A stretch of DNA of 64,000 nt from Lodderomyces elongisporus. Taxonomy: Eukaryota; Ascomycota; Pichiomycetes; Serinales; Debaryomycetaceae. Location: NCBI RefSeq assembly GCF_030384665.1, contig NC_083674.1, positions 1,798,001 to 1,862,000 on the forward strand, given 5' to 3'. The position numbers and the translations under genes are program-made. Under the pieces are notes generated by a model. That model was not told where the DNA came from. It saw only the letters and a program-made list of their open reading frames with translations, and did no database searches. The first letter of the stretch is position 1, and each line of letters starts with the position of its first letter. Positions 1 through 14,442 of this stretch are shown here, in pieces.

Positions 1-2256
1 TCGTTGCTTGGCACAACCTCCCATTTCTTCTTCAATTTTGTAATTTTTGATGGGGTGAGTCACACTCGAACCACCTGTTTACCTATCAGTATTGTATGCA
101 AATATCCATTTTTCCACCTTCAAGTCTAGACCAACATCAATGGTGAACAAAGAAAAAGAGAAAGAAGAAGAGAAAGAAGAAGAAGAAGAAATCCAAAAAA
201 AGAGAAGGCTGCCACTTTAAAGAGTAATCTGCAAAAGTATAAACGCAGGTGGTTGAGGTCTGAGGGGAAGAGGAGATGGGGAAGACTCGGCTTGTAAATT
301 TATGCTACCAATCGTTCTTTCTTTCTTATTTTTTCTATGTTGTTGTTGTTGTTGTTGTTGTTGCTCTATATTTTTTTTTTTGCTCACTGTGTGTGCACCG
401 GAAACGGTGTTGCATTGTTCATTGTCTGTTTTCATTTAAAAATTTCATTTGCTTTACAATCTGGTTTACAAGGTAGTTTTCTTGATAATTAATCCGAACA
501 ACGGTGTTTTTAGTTTTAAATTTCACTTTTCATATACTCAGACTTGCTTACGCGAAGTTACACTAACGTACACTAACGTACACTAACTTGCGGTAACTTG
601 CGGTAACTTGCGGTAACTGTTGAGGGATCTCAAGATAAGAGACCATCACGATTATTGTTTGTGCACACAAAATCGGATATACTGCATCTATGCCACTCTT
701 CGTCTAATTGCATCTCAGCTTTTTTAAGCGGCACCAATAGATGTGTCTACATATAAATAGAATTTGATAATAATAAATATAATAATAATATTATTATTAT
801 TATTAGCAATTGTATCCACAATAATGTCTTTGTTTCAAATGAGACTTAGCAAAATCGAACAGAGCATAACCAACATAGACGACGGAACTTTACAGACCGT
901 GAGAAGCTTAATAAATAACTTTAAAGCGATGAGTAACAGTAAGCTTAGACGATGCAACCGGACTGCTTGAAGCGATGAGTAGTTGGTTTTGTCATTTGGA
1001 GGACATTGTTTTTTTTCTTCTTCTTTTCTTTTCTTTTCTATTCTTTATTTTATTTAATTTTGTTTTATAATTATTATTTTTTATATTTTTACATTGTTTG
1101 TAACGACATCCAATATGAGGAAGGGGCTAACAAATGGATAATCATGTAACCGTTGGGGGAGGGGGAGGGGGAAAGAGGGAAAAGGAGGTGGTAAGGCATA
1201 ATGATTTATGAAACTCAAACAGAATTTGTCTTTTATCTGCTTTGCTTTTACCTTGCGCTCACAACCCATTAACCTATTAGCCCATATCCTAAAGCTTAAA
1301 GGCCAATGCCCATAACCAGTATAAACTAGTGCACCCAAAATTCTCTGTTTCATATATTAATTTGAGACACTACCTTCCAGTACATCTAGAGTCTTGCAAA
1401 CATCGTGTAAGCTTAAAAAAGAATAGGAGAGGGGGGCGGTTAGATAAATAAGGTTGGTAATAAACTGTAAAGAAACTAAACAATACTTACAATTGAATTG
1501 ACAATTAAATGAAGAGTAATTTTTTCTTTTTGTTGATTTATTAAGAATAAGCCTAGCTCCATCACCGCGGGTATTTCACTACAAATATATATACATATAT
1601 TTGTGTGTGTATAATATTCTAATCTTAACTGTAAGAATAATACCTCAAAGCCACATTGTAAAACACACTTTAAGAAATACAATAAGAAGAAAAAAAAAAT
1701 ATTAAAAAAATTAAAAGAATTAAAAGAAAAAGAACAAGAAAATCATGTATTTTGAATGTCACACCCATACTCTTATTTATATATATATATATATATATAT
1801 ATCCAAATGTATCACATCGTTGATCATCTCTACTCCGTCACTGTCTTATCTTCTATAGAATCTTCTATAGTCTCTACTCCTTACTTCTTGATTTGAAAAA
1901 AAACAAAATAGTTACTAGATTAAAAGGACATATAACACAGTCACTATATGCATACCCCAGACTGTTAGCTTGATAAACTATCCTACAATACATATATACA
2001 CACATATATATATATACACCGACCATCTTCAACGGTTAAACCAAAAAAACAGAAAAGAAGAATAAAGAAGCAAAGAGAGATATAAAACACATCCAATATA
2101 CATATATAAAGGAAAACACACAAGCCATCCCATTCCTTTCTTCAAGTGTTTTGTTTTGTACCCCCCCGCCCCGCCCCTTTAGTCCTTGTTTCTTCACAAA
2201 TCATCAGCACCTTATCTTGTCCTAATATATATATATATATACATATATATTAAAGG
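1..2256. other. Intergenic region upstream of the amino-acid permease
   Basis: No convincing gene is seen. The stretch holds polypurine runs (about 155-200), a TTG triplet run near 340-362, a decamer repeat array (561-620), a G-rich tract (about 1154-1180) and long AT dinucleotide runs near 1780-1802 and 2228-2250. An open frame near 764-970 begins with a run of isoleucine/leucine codons derived from an AT-rich repeat and lacks an ATG at its start, so I do not call it. The last several hundred bases presumably contain the permease promoter and 5' leader. Confidence 0.7.
561..620. repeat. Decamer tandem array with TAAC core
   Basis: Six consecutive 10-bp units run without a gap: two copies of cactaacgta, one hybrid cactaacttg, two copies of cggtaacttg and a final cggtaactgt. 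Every unit has TAAC at the same position. The hybrid unit in the middle suggests that two related decamers were amplified by slippage or unequal exchange. The period is close to one turn of the DNA helix, so any protein bound to the TAAC cores would lie on one face. No gene overlaps it; the nearest is the permease 1.6 kb downstream. Confidence 0.9.
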
Positions 2257-4425
2257 ATGGAGCAAAAAAATGCACACTACATGTCTACTATTAGTTCGGT
2301 TTCATCACAACGACTAAATAGTGCCACATCGGCGAATGGCAGCTACCCCTCCTCGATCCACGGCTCAGAATATGCTTTATCTTCTTGCTCTTCGTCCACC
2401 TCCACCTCTTCCTCTTTAGCCTCTTCAGTTGTTTCCACGAGACACAGATTCAACCCAACATTTGCATTCCATAATTTCATCGAGTCTTTTAAACCATTCG
2501 ACTATTCATCACTACCCCCGGTATACTTGGACCATTTTCAACTAAACTCACAACAAACAAAAGAGTTTGGTGAAGAGCTCAATACACAACATGGGAACCC
2601 AGCAGGTACCCAAGTAAAGAATCAAATTGGATCTAGTACCAGTCCCAATTTAAATTCACTTGTACTGCCGAGAAGAAGTCAACTAGATGGCAGCAATGAA
2701 GCAGCACTACACCCAGCACATCCCAACTTTGACTATTCCCAATTCACACAACTCGAACGAGATGCCATTATCACGGCAATGAGCCCCTTGAGCAAAAAGT
2801 TGCGTGCACGACACTTGACGTGGATCTCGCTTGGGGCAAGTATTGGTACTGGATTATTCATTACCCTGGGTGTGTCCTTACACCATGCAGGACCATTGGG
2901 TCTTTTATTGGTATGGATGTTTATAGGAAGCTTGGTCTTTGCCACAATGTCGAGTTTGTCTGAATTGGCCACTGCATTCCCTGTGAGTGGTGCATTTGTT
3001 ACTTTTCCAACCCTCTTTATCGATAAATCGCTTGGTTTTGCCATTGCTTGGAACTATGCCTTGCAGTGGTTGATCACAATGCCGCTAGAGTTGGTTGCTG
3101 CTTCAATGTGTATTCAGTATTGGCGACCAGACTTGAATCCTGCGATATTTGTTACTGTTTTTTACGTTGTTATTGTATTTATCAACTTGTTTGGTATCAA
3201 GGGGTATGGTGAGATTGAGAGTGTGATGAGTTTGATCAAGGTGATTGCTGTTATTGGGTTTAATATCCTTGCAGTGATTATTGTTGCTGGTGGTGTTCCA
3301 GGACAGCCATATATAGGAGGTGCCAACTGGCATCAGCCACAAGGTGGTCTTTTCAATTCTCATTCTCCATTTAAGCAAATGTGTTATATAATATCCAATG
3401 TTTCGTTTGCATTTGCTGGATTGGAGTTATTTGCGTTGGGTGCGGTTGAATCGGCAACACCAAAGATTTCGATAAACAAGTCGAGAAAGTGGATCTTGTA
3501 TCAAATTGTTATATTTTACCTTGTGTCAATAGTTATGATTGGGTGTCTTGTGTCGTACAAGAATCCACAATTGGATCCAGCAACCTCACGGGATGGTGGT
3601 TTGGGTATTGATGTTAATACTTCTCCATTTGTTATTGCCATTAGACTTGCCAATATCCATGCTGGGCCTTCTATTATGAATGCTGCAACCATTATTACAG
3701 TTGTATCTGTGGGTAATGCCTCTGTGTATGCCTCGACTCGTGTGCTTTGTGCTGTTGGTGCTTTAAGACAAGGTCCCAAGTTTCTTCGGTATATTGATAG
3801 AAAGGGTCGTCCAATGGGTTGTCTTGTTGTTCAGTTTCTATTTGGTCTTTTGGGGTATTTGGTGTGTGTGCCTGGACGCACAACAACGGCGCAGATATTT
3901 GCATGGTTGTTGAGTTTGAGTGGGTTGAGTGCTTTATTTACCTATTTGTCTATCAATCTATCGCATTTGAGGTTTCGCCAGGCATTGTATCATCAGGCAA
4001 GATCACCTAAACTGGAGTTGTTGTATACTTCGCCCGTGTGGTGCTCGTGGTATGCCATTGTAACCACATTGATTGCGCTAGTTTTGCAGTTTTGGGCTGC
4101 ATTGTGGCCTCCAGGTAGTGGTACCGGTGGTGGTGGTACCGGTGGTGGTGGTACCGGTGGTGGTGGTGGTGCTGATGTAAAGTCCTTTTTCCAAGTGTAT
4201 CTTAGTTTACCAGTGTTTCTCCTTTCTTATGTGGCACACAAGGTGTACGACTATTATTGGAATGGAGTGCCCTTGTTCAAGTTGTGGCTCGCTGTGGATG
4301 AGATTGATGTTGATTCTGGCAGGAGGCAGGTTGACTTGGAGGTGGTGAAGCAGGAGATTGCCGAAAGGGCCAATATGCTTGAAACAAAACCCTGGTGGTT
4401 TAGATTATACCACTTCTTTTGCTGA
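2257..4425 (+). CDS. Amino-acid permease (yeast AAT/APC family) with long N-terminal tail
   Basis: A 722-residue plasma-membrane amino-acid:proton symporter of the fungal AAT family. About 185 hydrophilic residues, rich in Ser, precede the first membrane helix, which carries the family signature RHLTWISLGASIGTGLF at about residues 184-200. Roughly twelve hydrophobic segments follow. The carboxyl end has the usual DSGRR motif followed by an acidic/aromatic tail ending in FFC, resembling the palmitoylated FWC tail of GAP1-type permeases. The N-terminal tail is longer than in most transporters (GAP1 has about 90 residues) and approaches the length in the sensor SSY1, but the core lacks the large SSY1-type loops, so I favour a transporter. 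A Gly-rich repeat (4123-4167) lies in the loop before the last helix. The ATG at 2257 is preceded by an AT-rich leader. Substrate range cannot be read from the sequence. Confidence 0.9.
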   Translation: MEQKNAHYMSTISSVSSQRLNSATSANGSYPSSIHGSEYALSSCSSSTSTSSSLASSVVSTRHRFNPTFAFHNFIESFKPFDYSSLPPVYLDHFQLNSQQTKEFGEELNTQHGNPAGTQVKNQIGSSTSPNLNSLVLPRRSQLDGSNEAALHPAHPNFDYSQFTQLERDAIITAMSPLSKKLRARHLTWISLGASIGTGLFITLGVSLHHAGPLGLLLVWMFIGSLVFATMSSLSELATAFPVSGAFVTFPTLFIDKSLGFAIAWNYALQWLITMPLELVAASMCIQYWRPDLNPAIFVTVFYVVIVFINLFGIKGYGEIESVMSLIKVIAVIGFNILAVIIVAGGVPGQPYIGGANWHQPQGGLFNSHSPFKQMCYIISNVSFAFAGLELFALGAVESATPKISINKSRKWILYQIVIFYLVSIVMIGCLVSYKNPQLDPATSRDGGLGIDVNTSPFVIAIRLANIHAGPSIMNAATIITVVSVGNASVYASTRVLCAVGALRQGPKFLRYIDRKGRPMGCLVVQFLFGLLGYLVCVPGRTTTAQIFAWLLSLSGLSALFTYLSINLSHLRFRQALYHQARSPKLELLYTSPVWCSWYAIVTTLIALVLQFWAALWPPGSGTGGGGTGGGGTGGGGGADVKSFFQVYLSLPVFLLSYVAHKVYDYYWNGVPLFKLWLAVDEIDVDSGRRQVDLEVVKQEIAERANMLETKPWWFRLYHFFC
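4123..4167 (+). repeat. In-frame 15-bp minisatellite (TGGGG units) in the permease
   Basis: Three tandem copies of accggtggtggtggt encode Thr-Gly-Gly-Gly-Gly starting at residue 623, just before the final membrane helix. With N and C termini in the cytosol and twelve helices, this loop would face outside. Copy number is expected to vary between strains. Confidence 0.85.
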
Positions 4426-5778
4426 GAAAAGAAGAAGAAGAAGAAGAAAAAGAGAAAAAGAGAAAAGAAGAAGAAGAAGAAGAAAAAGAGGAAAAGAAGA
4501 AAATAAAGGATAATTTTTGTAATTGTTTTACTAAAATTTGGTATATAATTTGTACCTCATGTTGACTTGATGATTATTATTTATATATTTATTGGATTTA
4601 GATGTACAATCATGCAATAGTGATGTAGTTTCCCCCCTCCCACCCCCCCCCCCCCCCAAAAAAAAAAAAAAAAAAAATAAAAAATTAGTCAAGTGTTCTA
4701 TATATGTGTTGCAAAACAGAAAGTTGGAGTGAATGAGAAAGGGGAAGTGGGCAGATTTGGTTGCAAAACTTTTTTTTTGTTTTTTTTTTCATCTTTCTCA
4801 GGATGCGATCTTCTTCTTCTTTCCTATCTCTCTCTTCTTTATTTATAGATGCATAAATAAAATAAAATAAAATAAAATAGAATAGAATAAAATAAAAATA
4901 GTCTTTTTTCCTTATATATATATTATATATTAAGCAATCCTGATATATAGTATGGGCTAACTAACGATACCCATACTACAAATAGTGACTGATCAAGTGA
5001 CTGTGTTGCCAAAAGTAAGAAAAGAAAAAGAAACAGTAATAAATATAGATGTTTCTTTTACTATTCTGTTTTACAGATCACAGCGAGATACACATGTACT
5101 GTATATATATATATATGTATATAGTATCTGTTTCGCTACTTGATATTTGCAACACAATTGTTTGTAGAAGTAGGAGAAAAATGAGAGAAAGTGGGAAGAT
5201 GAGGAGATATTTATAATTTTTATTTTAATTGGTTGAAGTATTTTAATTTTACTTTTACTGCTGGCTCCCTATCTACCAAATGTATATACATACATATTAT
5301 ATTATATATATTTATATATATGTGTATTATATTATATATTGGTTCTCCACTTGTCGTTGGTGAAATCTGGGGTAAGGAGATGTTAAGTAGGAAAGTGAGG
5401 GGGTGAGGGAGTGAGAAAGCGGGGGAACAAAAAGGAGAAAAGCTCATATTGAAGAATCAGACATTTTTATAATTGACTCTGATTTTTTCTTTTACTTGAC
5501 TTTCATTCACATTCTAAAATATTTTACACCTCCTGTATTTGTTTGTTTTTAACTATGCTAAGCTATAAGTGTGTTGCCTAATATTGCTTACTGCTTCTCT
5601 TTGAGTAAACTTACAAACAAGAGCAAAGAATTAAAAAAAAAAAAAGAAATTAAAAAGTTACCGTTTGCCCGTAATGAGGGGAAGTTTGTTGAAGTGGGAA
5701 AAGGACAAAAAAAAAGGTGAATAAAAGAAAAAGAAATTTCAAGACAAACAAATGAATATGAATATATTGAATCCTTAG
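4426..5778. other. Intergenic region between permease and retrotransposon
   Basis: The 3' flank of the permease begins with GAA-rich purine repeats (4426-4505), then a C-run followed by an A-run near 4640-4678, AATAA/AAAAT runs near 4860-4900, and AT dinucleotide patches near 5100-5120 and 5300-5340. I see no tRNA gene here, which matters because Ty3-type elements often insert next to tRNA genes. No coding region is supported. Confidence 0.7.
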
Positions 5779-5783
5779 AGAAC
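5779..5783. repeat. Target-site duplication, left copy (AGAAC)
   Basis: The five bases immediately before the left LTR are agaac, identical to the five bases after the right LTR (14438-14442). Five base pairs is the duplication length typical of Ty3/gypsy integrases. Confidence 0.95.
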
Positions 5784-5892
5784 TGTCACAGTGCGACACA
5801 CATTGGACGCTCTGTGCCCTCGTTTCCGCTAAGTGAATATTTGGAGAATATTGCACGACATAGGAAACTTGAAACTTCAAACAAGATGAGTT

Positions 5893-5900
5893 TATATAAA
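5893..5900 (+). promoter_or_regulatory. Putative TATA box of the LTR promoter
   Basis: TATATAAA lies 109 bp inside the left LTR, a sensible place for a U3 promoter that would start the genomic RNA some tens of bases downstream in R. The same motif recurs in the right LTR at 14093-14100. No mapped start is available. Confidence 0.5.
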
Positions 5901-6159
5901 TAGGAACGAGAAGTGGTAAAATTAACTTATCACTATTATATAGAAATATCGGTAAAATATAGATTTTATACGGTCAACTACATTGAACACAAATCACTAG
6001 GTGAACGTGCAGAGTGTATACTCTCACGATTCTCCTTACTAGTGACTTTGTATGAGACAATTTACTCTCTTAACTTATGAGCATTGAGACCTTTATAGGT
6101 GCGATCATTGACAATTACACTTAGTTGGAATATAGCCTATCAAGTCACGAACTCAAACC

Positions 6160-6182
6160 GCTGGTATCGGTGAGCTACCAGC
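6160..6182 (+). other. LTR hairpin with flanking direct repeat
   Basis: gctggta (6160-6166) and taccagc (6176-6182) are perfect inverted repeats around a 9-base loop. The 9-mer ctcaaaccg occurs at 6152-6160 and again at 6182-6190, overlapping each outer edge. The structure sits about 50 bp from the LTR end, probably in R or U5, and is repeated in the right LTR at +8200. A role in 3'-end formation, strand transfer or RNA packaging is only an inference. Confidence 0.6.
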
Positions 6183-6240
6183 TCAAACCGATGCTCAGCA
6201 GTCGTACACTTGTTACTTGTGACAGTGCTATGCGACAGAA

Positions 6241-6257
6241 TGGCGACCAGAGTGAGG
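6241..6257 (+). other. Primer binding site (minus-strand priming)
   Basis: Three bases after the left LTR comes tggcgaccagagtgagg. Its complement ends in GTCGCCA, the form of a mature tRNA 3' end with discriminator G and added CCA. The preceding CTCAC matches the T-stem of yeast tRNA-Asn as I recall it, so tRNA-Asn is the best candidate. Serine tRNAs also end GTCGCCA but differ in the T-stem. It does not match initiator tRNA-Met, the primer used by Ty3 itself. The tRNA identity is an inference. Confidence 0.7.
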
Positions 6258-7535
6258 ACCTCAAATCCTTGCAAATCATGTTGTTTGAATGATTTGATAT
6301 GGTTACCTAATATTTCAAGTAATTGATACATTGGTTGAGGCTACTGTTAAGCAGTATTGTCGACCAGGATATTGAATGATCATGACATTTCAATACCTTG
6401 GCATTTCAACATTTGGTCAATATCATTTATGAGAAGGACCTGTGGAAGAGTAAATCTCCTATCCACGAATTAATAGCTTCACTATTGTGAACTACAGTTT
6501 AAAGGAGGAGCTACTCCTCATTGGAGAACTATGCGAGTTTAGTCCAATGGAACATAATGCATCGTAGTCATCGGGACGTATCCGAGACTACACCAGAAAA
6601 TATCAAATAGCGTATACTGTCAACACTTTATGATGGAATATTCACCCATCAGTTGACAAAGGGCGAAGGTTGTAGACGTTAGACAGAGTGCAACTATAGA
6701 CCGAATAGAGTCGTGTCTGCTGACTTGGCTATAGTTTGAAGGCTGTACGTGTGATAGGCATGGCGTTGAAACGAGTACCGAAGATTGCACGGGTATAGGT
6801 GGCTACCCTCAATTGGTGCAAAGATCGAGGAAAGTATTTTTAGGATAATGACCACATCCCTAATTTGGGTTTATATCATTTTTTTAAAAAAGACTTATTA
6901 CATTCTAGAAGGTAAATAAGCACCGTTAAAGCAGCGTTTAAGAAATCATCATTACTGTCTACGGACTCATCTGAGTATGATGGTAGCAGACTAAACAAAC
7001 TACACGGGTTATCGGTGAGGTAGAATTACACCAGATAAAAACGGCGGAGATGGTAACTACCGAGGGAAAGACTAAATTGCATCTCGCAAGAAAGACTATA
7101 TAGCATCTTGAGAGAAAGACAGAATTGCATCCCGAAAGAAGCAACCAATTATTATTATGAAACTACAGTGTTTCAATAGGTCGTTCAATCATCACTTTAT
7201 TAGAGATACTGACTTAGCGCCTGCTATATAGGAGGAGTCAAATCCGAGGCACTCATTTATTGTCGACAAAATTTTTAAGATGAGGCCAGGATACACGACT
7301 ATGCGCTGGTGAAAAATTTTCACCCTACTCAACAAAAATTGTTGTCCACGACCTCTTACTCGCGTGACGAGAACTATAAGTATTCCCGAGATTGATTGAA
7401 CGAAACCCTTGATAATTTGGAACAAAGGGTTTATCTACCATAAAAACATATCACCAAAAAGTTTAACACCAAGTATATCACATATTACATTCAAGCAAAA
7501 TATTATTCCAAAAACTTGAAAAACTTCTACTACAA
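6258..7535 (+). other. Long 5' leader of the retrotransposon
   Basis: About 1.28 kb between the primer site and gag ATG, with no ORF of note on the sense strand. It contains a triple 24-bp repeat at 7067-7138. Ty3 itself has a very short leader, so this length is unusual. It could hold packaging/dimerisation signals or an internal translation element; nothing in the sequence settles which. Confidence 0.7.
7067..7138 (+). repeat. Three tandem 24-bp imperfect repeats in the leader
   Basis: Three abutting 24-base units at 7067-7090, 7091-7114 and 7115-7138 share the frame AAAGAC....AT.GCATC.....AG. All begin AAAGAC and contain (T/A)GCATC at the same offset. Divergence between the units shows the repeat is old compared with this insertion, which has identical LTRs, so it is probably maintained by selection or fixed in the family. 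Confidence 0.85.
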
Positions 7536-9296
7536 ATGTCATCTTCAACAAAAGATTCTAAGACCTCTAATCCTACTCCAAGGAGTATCAACCCTGGTCC
7601 AAGTAAACCAGACCTTGCTGGTGTCGACTCATCTTCAATTTCCGGGCAGTCTATTTCTACCTCGGGAAGAGCCGATATGAGCGAAGGTGAAGATGAATCT
7701 CCTGGTTTGAAAAGGACAGAAGCTCCTCAAATAAATCAGGTTGAGATTAACGAGATCTTAGACTTGAAATCTGAGATGATGATGATGCAAGAGCAGATGA
7801 AACAAATGACTGCTATGTTTAAAGCCGCTATGATTCAAACAGTCCCGCAACTTAGCACTCCTGTACCAGCTAGGAACGATGAGGCTAACAAGGCCCAGAT
7901 TTCGGATGATAACAACAGCATAACCCTGCCAACTGACGTGCAAATGAAAGTTCATCCGGAAGAACACACATTTTCACCAGGACGTAACTTCCCTATCTCG
8001 AGGCCACACTCACTCGCTTCACCCTTGACTCACCAATCCCGTCAAAGTGGTACTCCTAGTGCTTATGGATCTGATAGATCTGTTGCATCTTACGATGGTA
8101 TCCTTTACCATGGAGAAGTAGTCCATAGCGGATTCTGGGTTGAAGGCCATGAAGAAGCTTGTCAAATCATAAACGAGGCAAGACAGAGGTACCCTCATGG
8201 GGAAGACGTCAGGGTAATTCCATACATTCGAGTCCCAGACATAGCTGTCGAAAAGGCATTCATGGCGTACTACGACAAACTCCTTGCCAAACAAGGGAGA
8301 ACTCAAAATGACAATATGGCACTCGGTCAGTATGACATTGCAAAACGTGTCCCTTTGAAGTTCTCCGATGAGGAAGGTTTCATGTTCTGGTTAAAGTCGG
8401 TTTTGTGGCACAAACACACCTACGGTGTTCCTGATAAGCTCATCATTAATGAGTTAAGGAACGGAGCTAATTTGACGAAGTCAGAGTCGTTGAAGGACAT
8501 GATTGAGATGTCATGTAAGAGTGAGGGCCCCTTTGAACAACCGGTGGTTGATTACTTACCTATCTTGGGCAATGGGGGCACTCCTCCAGAAACGAACCAA
8601 GTTACTGATGTTATGACTGCTATCCATGATGCTTTGAAAAAGAAACATAATCCTAGAGTGAAAATGACCATTATTGGTATTGCTGTCAAAAAGTATTTGA
8701 GGATCACCAATACATCTCACCTAGCACAGGAAACATGGATCTCAATCTTTAAGACCCTTTTCGAAAGGATGGGTAGTGTCATGGATCAAATAATCATGTA
8801 TATGACCCCGGAAGTTAAAATCGAAAAGCCGGGAAGGACTGGACCAATAGTCACGTTTGAAGATGCGTCGATCATAAAGATTGGCCTTGGACTCCTCAAG
8901 AATAAACCTAACGATAAAATCATTCAAGGTGTCAAATCATACGATTTGACATTTGAGAGGATCTGGGATGCTGTTAATGCAACATTTCAAACGAGGATGC
9001 ATCTTATCTCAGATGACGAAGAAAAAGATGCCGGTACTACACTGGTGTCTAAAGGTGACAAATCACAAAAGACTACTAAATGTAATTTTTGTGGAAAGTA
9101 CAGACACACTGTTGATAGTTGCCACTTATTGGTGACTGCTTTGGATGAAAAGTTGGTAAAGAAAGTCGATGGGAAGTATTACTTAGCAAACGGTGAACCG
9201 TTGGTCATGGATTTCTATAAGTGTCCCCTTTTAAAACACCTGAGCTTGAAATCTCTAAGTTCTAATGCGAGGCATCGCACGCCCCCAACAAAGTAA
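7536..9296 (+). CDS. gag: Gag polyprotein (capsid plus nucleocapsid)
   Basis: A 586-residue Gag. Residues 1-170 are polar, rich in Ser/Pro, with a short helical segment near 73-105. Residues about 170-490 are the likely capsid region, mixed helical with aromatic residues. A CCHC zinc knuckle of pattern C-X2-C-X4-H-X4-C starts at C516 and ends at C529, near the carboxyl end, as in retroviral nucleocapsids. Gag is twice the length of Ty3 Gag (about 290). The ATG at 7536 is the first long-frame start after the leader. The last 38 nt overlap the pol open frame, and a +1 shift in this overlap would produce Gag-Pol. Its job is assembly of the virus-like particle and RNA packaging in the cytoplasm. 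Confidence 0.92.
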   Translation: MSSSTKDSKTSNPTPRSINPGPSKPDLAGVDSSSISGQSISTSGRADMSEGEDESPGLKRTEAPQINQVEINEILDLKSEMMMMQEQMKQMTAMFKAAMIQTVPQLSTPVPARNDEANKAQISDDNNSITLPTDVQMKVHPEEHTFSPGRNFPISRPHSLASPLTHQSRQSGTPSAYGSDRSVASYDGILYHGEVVHSGFWVEGHEEACQIINEARQRYPHGEDVRVIPYIRVPDIAVEKAFMAYYDKLLAKQGRTQNDNMALGQYDIAKRVPLKFSDEEGFMFWLKSVLWHKHTYGVPDKLIINELRNGANLTKSESLKDMIEMSCKSEGPFEQPVVDYLPILGNGGTPPETNQVTDVMTAIHDALKKKHNPRVKMTIIGIAVKKYLRITNTSHLAQETWISIFKTLFERMGSVMDQIIMYMTPEVKIEKPGRTGPIVTFEDASIIKIGLGLLKNKPNDKIIQGVKSYDLTFERIWDAVNATFQTRMHLISDDEEKDAGTTLVSKGDKSQKTTKCNFCGKYRHTVDSCHLLVTALDEKLVKKVDGKYYLANGEPLVMDFYKCPLLKHLSLKSLSSNARHRTPPTK

Positions 9297-12200
9297 GTCC
9301 AAGGCAGCACAAGTTATGGAGGTAGAGGTTATTCCTAAGAGTACAGTCACTAGTAACTCTAGAGAAAATACCCACCACGAACGATTACCGACAGAAGTGA
9401 TGCAATCTAATTCTCATATAATGTCTGATTCAATAGATGAAGTGATTAAACCCGGACCCATCATGATTGATGACGTCCCGGTTTACTTGGTGCACGCAGC
9501 CAATGCTCAATCTGCTAAGAAGGTAGTGAAGGATTGGACTGCGAAGAAAGCCCATCTCCCTAGCTCGCGAAAAGATGCTCACAATAAGTTGAAGGCTGAT
9601 AAGGTGAAACAGCAACTCAATGCAGCAGTTAGACAACGGCAGGAGATGGAGAGAGTGGAGCGTGAAAGCGCACCTAGCCCTGTAACAGAGCAATCTATGC
9701 AGGAGTCCCGACGGGAATTAGACACTGAGTCCCCGCCGATCGGAGAGCAGTCTCCACCCTATGACTCACATTTACCATTCCTGGAACTCCAGTTTCCAGA
9801 TGAAAACATAGACGTAGACCCAGACTACGAGTATGAAGAACCTAGCTCGGCTGGTATTCGGTTCGAACCCTCCGCACTGACAATGGATAGGGAATTAGAA
9901 AACCTAGCCATGGAGGACACCGTAGATCCTGATGAAGAGTTAAAGTTATTCCTATCCGAAGGAAAAGGAATTGAACAGACTTCTACGCCACCGGAGAATG
10001 GAAACATGATGAGTCACCCTCAAGAAGAAGTGCCTAAGGTGAAATCTGACGTTGTTGTTAATGAACCACTTAATGAGGAACAGGCAAATGCTACCGCTGA
10101 TGATGGAGTTGACTCCCCAGTGGCTGACGATTCAATTAAACTCTTTAGTGTCGAAGACATCTTGAGAGAGAATCAGCTAGATGAGCTTGCCAAATTAAGT
10201 GCAACGTCCGACCAACCACACCACCTTGCTGACGATTCCACTGATCCACAGCGGAAAAGTCAGCGCCGAGTACGTACTAGTAAATTGACCATACTAGACA
10301 AACAGGCTGCATTCAAAGATGCCATGAAACATAACTTCTTCGTGTTTATGGATCTTTCGAAGTATTTGGGAATGCACGATGATGCTCGAGCCATGATGAG
10401 AGAAAGTACTAAAGCTATGTTGGTTGACAGAGATGTTTTGCAGAAAGCCCTTAAGGATGGTATTGCCAAGTTCAAGAAGAAACCAGTTGTTACTGAAGTA
10501 AATCTGACGACCACTTCGACAGGCTACCACCAACCAGGGGTCACTCAAGAACTACTCTGTTTCCCCGCATCCATACATGGCCGTAGGATAGAAATGAAAT
10601 ACGACACCGCGGCCCAGTTGAGTTTGATCAACCCGCAAACACTAAAAGGGTTACCAATTAAGCCTTTTCCCTTGAGCCAGCCAGTATTTGTTCAAGGTGT
10701 TAATAATGACACCAAAGCAATTACTCAGGGAGTGTTTTTAGATGTTACTGTCCATTTCATCTCCTTACCTGCAATCCTCTATTTGCACGAGCAAATTCCT
10801 GTTGGTCAGGTACTACTCGGGTTGCCATTCCAAGATGCGCACAAACTCTCCATTGGGTTTACTGATGATGGTGATAAACGAGAGTTACGTTTCCGCGCGA
10901 ATGGCAACATTCATAAATTCCCTATTCGTTACGATGGGGATTCTAACTACCACATCGATTCATTTCCAACTGTCCAAGTGAGTCAAACCGTCGTCATTCC
11001 TCCCCTTTCAGAGATGCTTCGACCTGCATTTACCGGGTCTAGGGCGAGCGAAGATGATATTCGGTATTTCGTGGACCAATGTGCTGAGGTGTCTGATGTC
11101 TTCTACATTAAAGGTGGAGACCCTGGCAGACTTAAGCCTGAAATACACCCTCCCGTTCGTATCAACTTGCGAGATCCGAATGTTCACTGGCGGATGAAAT
11201 CGATCCCATTAGGATCTAAACGTACCGCTGCAGTAGAGATTCTCCAAGAAATGATACGACAGGGGCAATTGGTCTATAGTGATGCGACTTATCGGAACCC
11301 ATGGTTTCTCATAAGTAAGAAGGATGGAAGGCATCGATTGTTGATTGACCTTCGGGAACTCAACAAAAATGTGGAGTTGGAAGGGGGTCACCCACTCTCC
11401 GTGGATGATCTCACTACAGAGATTAGTGGTTGTTGGTTTATAAGTACTATTGATGTGCAGAATGCGTATTTTCAAATACCATTGGATGCTGCTACTAGCG
11501 ATGTTACCAGTTTTAACAGCCCGTTAGGTTTGTTGAAGTATGCTGTCCTTCCTCAAGGATATATCAATTCAGTAAGTGAGTTTAGTTCTATCTTACAAAA
11601 GATTTTGAGCCCAGTTGCGAAGGATGTGATGTGTTTTATTGACGACATTGCCATCGTGGGTCCCAAAGTAGATGAACTTACCGACTCACTGGTTCGAGAA
11701 CACCTAGATAAGATTGTCGAAGTGTTCCGTCTTCTAACCAATGCTGGCTTGAAGATTAACCCTGCGAAGTTAAAGATCGCTGTACCTGAATGTGATTTTC
11801 TTGGATACCATATTTCACCTGCAGGGAAAACGTTAATTAGGGGTCAAGTGGATGCATTATTGAATTACCCACTCCCTAACACGGTCAAACAGCTAGAAAG
11901 TTTCCTTGGCTTGGTCAATTATTACCGACAGTTGATTGTAGGGCATGCTGAGTTGACTGCTCCCCTCTACAACTTAGTCAATCAAGCAAGGAAGGAACCC
12001 AAGCATCAGATTCATTGGGATCCTACAACTAAGCGGTTTTTCCACCAAATCATCACAGTACTAACCAACCAACCGATTCTCCAACCCCTTAATTTTAAGG
12101 ACCTCATTACTGTCCACACTGATGCTTCGACAGACTCTTGGGGTGGTGTGTTGCAAAACACCAATGCGGCTGGAGAATCGAAACTAGTCCTGTGCTATTC

Positions 12201-13848
12201 TGGAAAGTTCCATGGTTCTGAAAAGAACTATACTATTTACGAAAAGGAACTTTTCAGTATTTATAAGACGTTTGATGCAATCCATCCACTCTTGTTTGGA
12301 TTTACTGGGGTCATTCATTTGTACTGTGACAACAAAGCTCTTGTCCTTGTGATGAATAAACCACTCGATAATTCACACTTTGTAAATCGGGTTTACAAAT
12401 GGTTGAACTTCATCAGGACCTTCAACTATCAGATCCATCACATTGATGGACTGAAAAACATCATTGCCGATGCTCTTAGCCGATGCCACACGTCTACTCC
12501 GCAGACTGATCATTATGAGGTCAGAGAAGCTATTGCCGAGTTTAGGGCGAAGTTGGATCCTAAAGTACTAGCAGAAGTTAATGTTGTTACCATTGAAGCT
12601 GAGCCTAATAACAGTTATAAGAAGATCCCACTTCAAGCGCTTAGAAAGTACCTTGAGGCACGTACCATTCCCGTTTCGCACAACGCACCTGCTGACGCCA
12701 GACGTTTCATCAACCGCGCACTAGAGTTCTATTTACATGATGGAATCCTTTACAAGTTAGGTCGGACCGGTTCATACACTCGACGCGTCGTTTATGAGAA
12801 CAATCAGGTTGAACACATATTCAATCTTGCTCATAGAGATCGTGGTCACCCAGGAGTTGAGACTACGTTCAATCTAATAAATACTGGATTCTACATTCCG
12901 AACCTCTATCGCAGACTTGCCGACTATATCAAACGGTGTGTTTATTGTCAAAAGGACCAACCTGCAACTAGGCAGCGGGATCCATTGTACTTGAACTACC
13001 CGGCTGGTATGTTTCATACAATCGTCTGTGACTGCGTTAAGCTCCGTGACGCTACTGTTGTCGTTGCACGTGACGAATTTCTGGGATGGCCCGAAGCTCA
13101 GGTTTTACCAAAGGTTACTGCAGAGGCAGTAGCCGACTTTATTTATTCAAACTTTATTGCTCGTGTAGGAACCTTTAGTGTTTTGAAAACCGACAATGGT
13201 CGTGAATTTCACAATGAGGTCCTCCAGCAATTGCTCTCAAATTATGGCATTTCTCCATCTTATTCTGTACCGTACCATCCGCAGGGGAATGGGATGATCG
13301 AAGCGTCGCACAAACGACTTATCAGATTCATCAAACTGGTTCCAGAGAATAAGAATTTGAGCAAAGTTTTGAATGCTGCATTGTGGGTGGATCGTACTAC
13401 GGTTCGTAAACGTACGGGATTCACACCACAATACTTGGTTTTTGGATTTGAAGGTAATAATCTGCTCCAATCATTGATGCAAACACCATCTGATATACAA
13501 CAATACACGGAGGACGAACTATTCAAGTTCCGCGTTGGTCAGTTTTATTTCCGTAAACAACAGGAAGACTCTGCTAAGGAAACTCAACGCCGCGATCGGG
13601 ATCATCAGAAGGAAGTTTTTGACAAACGTTATGACACTAATGTACCGATCAAGAAAGGAGACTTAGTCTTAGTTTACGATGCTGCTACCAACAAGATGGG
13701 CTTGAATTGGTCGGGTCCTTTCGTTGTCCGGAAGGTGCTGTCGAGGATTTACTATCTTAGTAACCTCCAAGGCATTCCCATGAAACGTCAGTATACTAGG
13801 GAGATGTTGAAACCGTTTGTTGCCGCTCCGCTTAGTACTACAAAATGA
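9265..13848 (+). CDS. pol: Pol polyprotein: protease, reverse transcriptase, RNase H, integrase
   Basis: 1527 codons from the first in-frame ATG; expression is probably as Gag-Pol by +1 shift, with the frame open from 9259. Residues 1 to about 430 are acidic, low in known motifs and longer than in Ty3. The aspartic protease site is DTA at D447-A449 (usual form DSG/DTG). Reverse transcriptase has the first catalytic Asp in TIDVQNAYF (D730) and the box FIDD (D793, D794). RNase H shows D953, E993/E995 and D1022. Integrase has the zinc site H1190, H1195, C1225, C1228 and a catalytic D1256, D1310, E1346 with exactly 35 residues between the last two. A GPF-type module (WSGPF, about residue 1487) follows; I see no chromodomain. 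All catalytic residues appear intact. Confidence 0.95.
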   Translation: MRGIARPQQSKSKAAQVMEVEVIPKSTVTSNSRENTHHERLPTEVMQSNSHIMSDSIDEVIKPGPIMIDDVPVYLVHAANAQSAKKVVKDWTAKKAHLPSSRKDAHNKLKADKVKQQLNAAVRQRQEMERVERESAPSPVTEQSMQESRRELDTESPPIGEQSPPYDSHLPFLELQFPDENIDVDPDYEYEEPSSAGIRFEPSALTMDRELENLAMEDTVDPDEELKLFLSEGKGIEQTSTPPENGNMMSHPQEEVPKVKSDVVVNEPLNEEQANATADDGVDSPVADDSIKLFSVEDILRENQLDELAKLSATSDQPHHLADDSTDPQRKSQRRVRTSKLTILDKQAAFKDAMKHNFFVFMDLSKYLGMHDDARAMMRESTKAMLVDRDVLQKALKDGIAKFKKKPVVTEVNLTTTSTGYHQPGVTQELLCFPASIHGRRIEMKYDTAAQLSLINPQTLKGLPIKPFPLSQPVFVQGVNNDTKAITQGVFLDVTVHFISLPAILYLHEQIPVGQVLLGLPFQDAHKLSIGFTDDGDKRELRFRANGNIHKFPIRYDGDSNYHIDSFPTVQVSQTVVIPPLSEMLRPAFTGSRASEDDIRYFVDQCAEVSDVFYIKGGDPGRLKPEIHPPVRINLRDPNVHWRMKSIPLGSKRTAAVEILQEMIRQGQLVYSDATYRNPWFLISKKDGRHRLLIDLRELNKNVELEGGHPLSVDDLTTEISGCWFISTIDVQNAYFQIPLDAATSDVTSFNSPLGLLKYAVLPQGYINSVSEFSSILQKILSPVAKDVMCFIDDIAIVGPKVDELTDSLVREHLDKIVEVFRLLTNAGLKINPAKLKIAVPECDFLGYHISPAGKTLIRGQVDALLNYPLPNTVKQLESFLGLVNYYRQLIVGHAELTAPLYNLVNQARKEPKHQIHWDPTTKRFFHQIITVLTNQPILQPLNFKDLITVHTDASTDSWGGVLQNTNAAGESKLVLCYSGKFHGSEKNYTIYEKELFSIYKTFDAIHPLLFGFTGVIHLYCDNKALVLVMNKPLDNSHFVNRVYKWLNFIRTFNYQIHHIDGLKNIIADALSRCHTSTPQTDHYEVREAIAEFRAKLDPKVLAEVNVVTIEAEPNNSYKKIPLQALRKYLEARTIPVSHNAPADARRFINRALEFYLHDGILYKLGRTGSYTRRVVYENNQVEHIFNLAHRDRGHPGVETTFNLINTGFYIPNLYRRLADYIKRCVYCQKDQPATRQRDPLYLNYPAGMFHTIVCDCVKLRDATVVVARDEFLGWPEAQVLPKVTAEAVADFIYSNFIARVGTFSVLKTDNGREFHNEVLQQLLSNYGISPSYSVPYHPQGNGMIEASHKRLIRFIKLVPENKNLSKVLNAALWVDRTTVRKRTGFTPQYLVFGFEGNNLLQSLMQTPSDIQQYTEDELFKFRVGQFYFRKQQEDSAKETQRRDRDHQKEVFDKRYDTNVPIKKGDLVLVYDAATNKMGLNWSGPFVVRKVLSRIYYLSNLQGIPMKRQYTREMLKPFVAAPLSTTK
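9267..9273 (+). promoter_or_regulatory. Candidate +1 ribosomal frameshift site GCG-AGG-C
   Basis: Pol lies in the +1 frame relative to gag and opens only after a stop at 9256-9258, so the shift must occur between 9259 and the gag stop at 9294-9296. Within this 38-nt window, in the gag frame, is GCG AGG C. Ty3 shifts at GCG AGU U and Ty1 at CUU AGG C, both relying on a slow second codon. This site combines the Ty3 P-site codon with the Ty1 A-site codon. Skipping the A at 9270 puts GGC (9271-9273) into the A site in the pol frame. Confidence 0.75.
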
Positions 13849-13861
13849 TTTTCTACTTTGC

Positions 13862-13872
13862 AGGGGGGGAGG
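13862..13872 (+). other. Second polypurine-tract-like copy
   Basis: agggggggagg at 13862-13872, just after the pol stop, closely copies the polypurine tract next to the right LTR, 109 bp further on. It could act as an extra plus-strand primer, or mark an ancestral LTR junction. No LTR sequence follows it. Confidence 0.5.
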
Positions 13873-13970
13873 CCACAACGGTTATCATCAATTTGTACAG
13901 TTATTTTACCTCAAATCAATTTTTTCCGAAATGCAATGAAAATAAGGCCGTATCGCTCATTCAGACTCTG

Positions 13971-13983
13971 AAGGGGGGGAGGA
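13971..13983 (+). other. Polypurine tract (plus-strand primer)
   Basis: aagggggggagga directly abuts the TG of the right LTR. A purine run in this position is the RNase H-resistant primer for plus-strand DNA synthesis in LTR retroelements. Confidence 0.9.
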
Positions 13984-14437
13984 TGTCACAGTGCGACACA
14001 CATTGGACGCTCTGTGCCCTCGTTTCCGCTAAGTGAATATTTGGAGAATATTGCACGACATAGGAAACTTGAAACTTCAAACAAGATGAGTTTATATAAA
14101 TAGGAACGAGAAGTGGTAAAATTAACTTATCACTATTATATAGAAATATCGGTAAAATATAGATTTTATACGGTCAACTACATTGAACACAAATCACTAG
14201 GTGAACGTGCAGAGTGTATACTCTCACGATTCTCCTTACTAGTGACTTTGTATGAGACAATTTACTCTCTTAACTTATGAGCATTGAGACCTTTATAGGT
14301 GCGATCATTGACAATTACACTTAGTTGGAATATAGCCTATCAAGTCACGAACTCAAACCGCTGGTATCGGTGAGCTACCAGCTCAAACCGATGCTCAGCA
14401 GTCGTACACTTGTTACTTGTGACAGTGCTATGCGACA
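13984..14437 (+). repeat. Right long terminal repeat
   Basis: 454 bp, same ends as the left copy (TGTCACA...TGCGACA) and identical to it by eye over the whole length, offset by exactly 8200 bp. It supplies the 3' processing region of the genomic RNA. Confidence 0.97.
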
Positions 14438-14442
14438 AGAAC
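14438..14442. repeat. Target-site duplication, right copy (AGAAC)
   Basis: agaac directly follows the right LTR and matches 5779-5783. Confidence 0.95.

What the first reader, a model, noticed from the sequence alone, without database searches (positions are those of the whole stretch)
5784..14437. Intact, recently inserted Ty3/gypsy element
LTRs of 454 bp that appear identical, perfect 5-bp target duplications, unbroken gag and pol and all catalytic residues present. This combination suggests a recent, possibly active insertion. The 8.65-kb size and 1.3-kb leader depart from the compact Ty3 form.
Basis: partly seen in the sequence, partly recalled or inferred. Interest (0 to 1): 0.75.

Follow-up and report, generated by a model that had tools for sequence, protein, structure and literature searches.

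The report
Young burst of a yeast retrotransposon
This is one of about 19 nearly identical, freshly inserted copies of a virus-like jumping gene in the yeast Lodderomyces elongisporus, part of a family that swaps pieces with shorter relatives that seem to live off it.

Summary
Confirmed. Two identical 454-bp LTRs (5784-6237, 13984-14437) with AGAAC duplications flank an 8654-bp Ty3/gypsy element of Lodderomyces elongisporus NRRL YB-4239. Gag and pol are open under code 12 (CTG=Ser). Pol lies in the +1 frame, probably reached at GCG_AGG_C (9267-9273), a heptamer shared with two diverged families of this genome. The primer site (6241-6258) matches tRNA-Asn(GTT), 18/18.

Nineteen two-LTR copies of this LTR type were found, 19/19 with perfect 5-bp duplications. 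Seventeen keep both frames; the 16 of equal length differ at 19 sites, and one on contig 5 is identical to the window's. This is a very recent burst.

Two further layers emerged. (1) Against the one full-length copy of an older subfamily B, RT-RNase H-integrase is almost unchanged (dS 0.05-0.08) but gag is diverged (dS 1.6): the active lineage is a recombinant carrying a different gag module. (2) Twenty shorter two-LTR elements (2.4-5.0 kb) look like non-autonomous passengers. Five were read: all keep the LTRs and 5' leader, and three carry the active element's leader version. The leader probably holds cis-acting replication signals.

New member of a known kind. Present-day activity and strain polymorphism are untested.

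The parts
5779..5783 (.). 5' copy of the target-site duplication, AGAAC
5784..6237 (+). 5' LTR, 454 bp (TGTCAC...GCGACA); TATA-like box at 5893
6241..6258 (+). primer-binding site, 18 of 18 nt complementary to the 3' end (with CCA added) of tRNA-Asn(GTT); the three matching genes are on C2, C3 and C5
6238..7067 (+). first 830 bp of the leader, kept by all five non-autonomous elements examined; inferred cis-acting region (priming, packaging)
7068..7535 (+). rest of the leader, 59.5% identical to subfamily B; no ATG in the last 234 nt before gag; inferred gag-expression region
7536..9296 (+). gag, 586 aa, one CCHC zinc knuckle (C516-C529); 58% aa identity to subfamily B
9267..9273 (+). probable +1 frameshift heptamer GCG_AGG_C
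9265..13848 (+). pol frame (+1 to gag); fusion product read from 9271
9271..10545 (+). linker of about 425 aa between frameshift and protease; its first 255 aa are diverged from subfamily B
   Evidence: boundary approximate
10546..10905 (+). protease region (motif KYDTA)
   Evidence: boundary approximate
11236..11925 (+). reverse transcriptase (motif FIDD)
   Evidence: boundary approximate
11926..12510 (+). RNase H
   Evidence: boundary approximate
12511..13845 (+). integrase (HHCC zinc domain, DDE core); no chromodomain hit
   Evidence: boundary approximate
13970..13983 (+). polypurine tract GAAGGGGGGGAGGA abutting the 3' LTR
13984..14437 (+). 3' LTR, identical to the 5' LTR
14438..14442 (.). 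3' copy of the target-site duplication, AGAAC

Best explanation
An intact, autonomous Ty3/gypsy LTR retrotransposon (subfamily A) that has just gone through a burst of copying in Lodderomyces elongisporus NRRL YB-4239. Inferred life cycle: an LTR-driven RNA carries the leader; Gag is made from gag, and Gag-Pol by a +1 shift at GCG_AGG_C; tRNA-Asn primes minus-strand DNA at 6241; the purine tract at 13970 primes plus-strand DNA; integrase joins the DNA with 5-bp staggered cuts, mostly outside long reading frames. The lineage is itself a recombinant: a gag/linker module joined to LTRs and a pol shared with the older subfamily B. It also appears to supply proteins in trans to shorter elements that lack pol and have repeatedly taken over its leader by template switching. 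Shown by sequence: anatomy, copy number, youth, mosaic structure. Inferred: frameshifting, priming, trans-mobilisation, present activity.
For: LTR identity and duplications. 19 two-LTR copies, 17 with both frames open. 16 equal-length copies: 19 variable sites, pairwise differences 0-8, mean 3.4 of 8654. Two LTR variants occur in both LTRs of the same copy (158/8358 and 164/8364), as reverse transcription of one template predicts. tRNA-Asn match. Heptamer kept in subfamily B and in family C. Mosaicism A against B. Twenty short two-LTR elements, 11 of 14 outside the array with perfect duplications. Leader exchange.
Against: No RNA, protein or transposition data. LTR identity can also come from gene conversion. 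Differences among copies in coding sequence are 9 replacement to 1 silent, so they give no sign of selection keeping the proteins working; the number is too small to argue either way. Trans-mobilisation is inferred from structure only. The genome has a single full-length subfamily B copy, so the direction of the gag exchange is not known.
Confidence: 0.9

Rival explanations
1. The copies are older, and gene conversion or LTR-LTR recombination has kept them alike.
For: Gene conversion acts on dispersed repeats in yeasts (recalled). A second solo LTR, C3:2205073-2205526, is close to the A type though it carries the other start variant.
Against: Each of 19 copies sits at its own site with a perfect duplication. 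Variants are shared in nested groups of copies, e.g. sites 1667 and 2213 together in L015, L016, L021 and L024, and the whole 8654 bp is equally young, not patches. Subfamily B, with 97% similar LTRs, has not been homogenised.
Confidence: 0.05
2. Gag and pol are joined by re-initiation at the pol ATG (9265), not by a +1 shift.
For: An ATG opens the pol frame at 9265, inside the overlap.
Against: In subfamily B and family C the pol frame has no ATG at that place, yet GCGAGGC and the +1 frame are kept. Ty3 uses GCG_AGU_U and Ty1 CUU_AGG_C (passages of PMC12661321).
Confidence: 0.07
3. The A/B contrast reflects very fast evolution of gag rather than an exchanged gag module.
For: Gag is the fastest part in comparisons with family C too.
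Against: The silent-site distance also jumps, 1.59 in gag against 0.05-0.08 in RT-RNase H-integrase, which protein-level selection does not explain. Family C is equally far from A and B in almost every segment.
Confidence: 0.08
4. The short elements are internal deletions that never moved.
For: Six of 20 lie in one tandem array that carries a duplication only at its outer ends.
Against: The other 14 sit at separate places; 11 of 14 have perfect 5-bp duplications, 2 have one mismatch, 1 lies in a GAC repeat. Equal LTR spacings recur at different sites: 2071, 1945, 2775 and 4577.
Confidence: 0.05

Closest known systems
Ylt1 (Yarrowia lipolytica) and 'Ylt1-like' elements
   Same: Large Ty3/gypsy element: Ylt1 is 9453 bp with LTRs of about 715 bp (PMC5014426, passages). 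PMC3248453 (passages) already notes Ylt1-like elements in the L. elongisporus genome.
   Different: No Ylt1 sequence was compared here. Shorter element and LTRs.
Ty3 (Saccharomyces cerevisiae)
   Different: A-site part is AGG_C as in Ty1 instead of AGU_U; tRNA-Asn primer; no tRNA-gene targeting; 8.65 kb with a 1.3-kb leader and a long linker.
Tf1/Tf2 (fission yeast) and Ty1/Ty1' subfamilies
   Same: Near-identical RT and integrase with diverged gag (PMC7175516, passages), the pattern of A against B here.
   Different: Tf elements have a single frame and self-prime (same passages).
LARD elements of Scheffersomyces stipitis
   Same: Non-autonomous LTR elements in a CTG-clade yeast (PMC8546629, passages).
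   Different: There a centromere component with Tps5 elements; here dispersed over at least seven of eight contigs as pairs or single LTRs, with leaders exchanged with a Ty3/gypsy element.
Gag-pol proteins of Candida subhashii and C. maltosa (P0011, P0010)
   Same: 39-45% identity class in pol, Gag with CCHC, long segment before the protease.
   Different: Gag and pol are given as one continuous protein, so no frameshift is implied; the DNA was not seen.

Membership tests
Ty3/gypsy (Metaviridae) | pol order protease - RT - RNase H - integrase | tested here: met
   (protease and integrase core just under Pfam cut-offs)
Ty3/gypsy (Metaviridae) | LTRs with TG...CA ends, primer site, purine tract, short target duplication | tested here: met
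Ty3/gypsy (Metaviridae) | Gag with CCHC zinc knuckle | tested here: met
   C516, C519, H524, C529 kept in all 7 aligned sequences; the motif name is recalled
Ty3/gypsy (Metaviridae) | retroviral-type capsid fold in Gag | tested here: inconclusive
Ty3 proper | +1 heptamer GCG_AGU_U | tested here: not met
   the overlap holds GCG_AGG_C
Ty3 proper | initiator tRNA-Met primer (recalled) | tested here: not met
   18/18 match to tRNA-Asn
Ty3 proper | insertion at tRNA gene start sites | tested here: not met
   1 of 19 copies within 1 kb of the 63 tRNA genes scored (822 candidates; lower bound), 0.15 expected; 1 tRNA in 38 flanks of 500 bp. 5S genes not tested
Chromoviruses | chromodomain at the integrase end | tested here: not met
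   no chromodomain among families up to E 0.1
Ylt1-like group | clusters with Ylt1 in an RT tree | not tested
   stated for L. elongisporus elements in PMC3248453 (passages); no Ylt1 sequence at hand
Non-autonomous partner elements (LARD-like) | LTRs, primer site and purine tract kept, no pol frame, own duplications | tested here: met
   5 of 5 read elements; duplications 11 of 14 perfect

The most novel reading that the evidence does not exclude
The burst followed a gag-module exchange. By replacing gag and the linker while keeping LTRs and pol, subfamily A may have escaped restraint by older relatives, for example copy-number control acting through Gag, and then became the driver whose leader the non-autonomous elements captured. 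One recombinant passenger (L030; a second element of equal size lies at C5:861786) carries 398 codons of A-type Gag without the zinc knuckle and could act as a trans-dominant brake on the new driver. GCG_AGG_C would be a natural hybrid of the Ty3 and Ty1 shift sites.
Probability: 0.2. Interest if true: 0.7.

Novelty: new member of a known kind. Interest (0 to 1): 0.45.

Why it matters
L. elongisporus is a close relative of Candida parapsilosis and an emerging human pathogen (PMC10586162, PMC10484426). A family this young offers natural markers for strain typing and a way to watch a retrotransposon burst in the CTG clade. The A/B contrast and the leader captures give a genome-level record of gag replacement and of recombination between autonomous and non-autonomous elements, so two ideas become testable: that gag turnover releases an element from control, and that the leader holds the signals that passengers need. 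The hybrid frameshift site is testable with a simple reporter.

Tried and rejected
Leader as a specially structured RNA: one search gave z -3.72 (20 shuffles), but with controls in one script the leader scored -1.84, subfamily B's leader -2.05, six other stretches of the element -1.36 to -2.71 and the leader's antisense -4.16. Rejected.

Leader intron: no GTATGT or TACTAAC in the leader; one TACTGAC at element position 1424 and GTATGA at 267 and 1192. No case made. ATG gap before gag: 234 nt without ATG, shuffle P 0.0125 in A, but 0.097 in B (120 nt); kept only as a hint of a separate gag mRNA.

Integrase targeting to tRNA genes: rejected. First primer search used a pattern one base too long and found element copies and unrelated places but no tRNA gene; one search corrected it.

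Literature: 10 searches (one search found no paper). In those on Lodderomyces (18, 53, 54, 97) no listed title is a study of this element family; the only statement met is the Ylt1-like remark in PMC3248453.

Full report
What is there. The element runs from 5784 to 14437 with 454-bp LTRs that match at every base, AGAAC on both sides, a purine tract against the 3' LTR and a primer site 3 nt inside the 5' LTR. Gag is 586 codons; pol overlaps it in the +1 frame. The best protein match is LELG_02911 of Lodderomyces elongisporus NRRL YB-4239, 100%. The genome behind the window has 16,086,460 bases in 8 contigs and a 3,597,007-base contig, the figures given for the PacBio assembly of that strain in PMC10586162 (text read, part 1 of 2). 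The host reads CTG as Ser; 3 CTG codons in gag and 10 in pol are affected and both frames stay open.

Expression and priming. The only stretch where a ribosome can leave gag for pol is 9259-9296 (read). It holds GCG AGG C at 9267-9273. The same heptamer, in the same two frames, stands at the gag-pol overlap of subfamily B (L028) and of family C (L040), whose pol is 57% identical over 1314 residues. Passages of PMC12661321 give Ty3 as GCG_A.GU_U and Ty1 as CUU_A.GG_C; 'GCG AGG' did not occur in the held part of the review PMC5009743. Related proteins of C. maltosa and C. subhashii carry Gag and pol in one chain, so the strategy seems to differ within the clade; their DNA was not seen. The 18 nt at 6241-6258 complement the 3' end of tRNA-Asn(GTT) plus CCA; three such genes were found.

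Copies and age. A 31-nt LTR start pattern with up to 3 mismatches has 99 places, which fall into 40 pairs and 18 singles plus one LTR piece inside L022. Nineteen pairs have this element's exact start: 17 at 8200 spacing, one at 8315, one at 7187. All 19 have perfect 5-bp duplications; 17 keep both frames. L022 carries a 115-bp piece with LTR start sequence near the gag end, which removes the overlap; L010 is deleted and rearranged, with inverted gag sequence. LTR pairs are identical in 17 of 19. Among the 16 copies of exactly 8654 bp there are 19 variable sites, mean pairwise difference 3.4; the window copy equals L024 on contig 5 and L013 equals L020. One LTR difference in 16 x 454 aligned bases arose after insertion. 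With a yeast mutation rate of 1.7-3.3e-10 per base and generation (recalled), that is of the order of 10^5 generations on average, my arithmetic and rough. Coding differences are 9 replacement and 1 silent: too few to show selection. One solo LTR of this type, C6:943580-944033, is flanked by GATAG on both sides.

Where it lands. Three of 20 empty sites (19 A and the B copy) lie in a frame of at least 120 codons, against 61% of random positions in this window, about 3e-5 by the binomial (my arithmetic). The control is one gene-rich window, so bias of integration and later selection are not separated. tRNA genes are not the target.

A recombinant lineage. The one full-length subfamily B element (L028, C5, 8709 bp, both frames open, LTRs differing at 3 of 454) was compared with the window element. 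LTRs 97%, first leader part 87%, leader end 59.5%; gag 58% in protein with dS 1.59; first 255 linker residues 57%; RT, RNase H and integrase 98.7-99.5% with dS 0.05-0.08. From about window 10846 to the end of pol DNA identity is 97.3-99.6%. Family C is about equally far from both in nearly all segments; an exception is the last 85 Gag residues, 27% to A and 38% to B. I read this as exchange of a gag/linker module. Tf1 and Tf2 show the same contrast (PMC7175516, passages).

Passengers. Twenty pairs have spacings of 1945 to 4577. Five were read (L029-L033). All keep LTRs, primer site, the first 1284 positions or their B counterpart, and a purine tract; the middle is made of remnants of a B-like element. 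None has a pol frame; L030 has a 408-codon frame whose first 398 codons are A-type Gag but for a few changes. For the other 15, lack of pol is inferred from length. L029, L030 and L031 match the A leader at 99.3-100% and B at 89%; L032 and L033 match A at 88% and B at 96-97%, while all five end in the same passenger-type 3' part, 82-86% to either. L030 switches near position 2951 from 99.8% A to 99.7% L033. Template switching in shared particles is the simplest reading; Arabidopsis shows such exchange in bursts (PMC5668417, abstract). Common descent means that keeping the leader is not five independent events.

Verdict. The element is an ordinary kind of thing in an unusually good state, and what is worth following is the family history around it: gag exchange, leader capture, and a frameshift site that combines halves of the Ty3 and Ty1 sites.

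Noticed in passing
G000 C5:1387917-1425364 (L048-L056, L077-L079): Tandem array of six non-autonomous elements with a period of 6983 bp (one 7021); every inner junction joins the LTR end directly to TCATGG of a 4459-bp unit, and only the outermost flanks form a duplication (AAGAT). Content of the unit was not read.
   Followed up: partly
L022 (C5:247325-256093): A 115-bp piece from the purine tract and LTR start lies inside gag's end, just before the frameshift site, in an otherwise near-identical copy.
   Followed up: partly
L010 (C1:507451-515091): A copy with a deletion in pol replaced by inverted gag and pol pieces, yet with identical LTRs and a perfect duplication: it probably formed during reverse transcription.
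   Followed up: partly
L040-L043 (C7, C2, C3, C4): A second young family (C): four pol copies, 100% identical to LELG_04884 as reported, open frames of 1422 codons without stops.
   Followed up: partly
L028 and L033, element positions about 1218-1740: Direct repeats of about 104 bp in the leader, in differing numbers between elements.
   Followed up: no
P0126: A Gag nearly identical to subfamily B's, from Logan/ENA contigs, while the A-type Gag cluster (P0125) lists only NCBI, UniRef and nr sources: perhaps other strains carry B but not A.
   Followed up: no
window 5280-5339: AT-rich 30-bp direct repeat 0.4 kb before the insertion.
   Followed up: no
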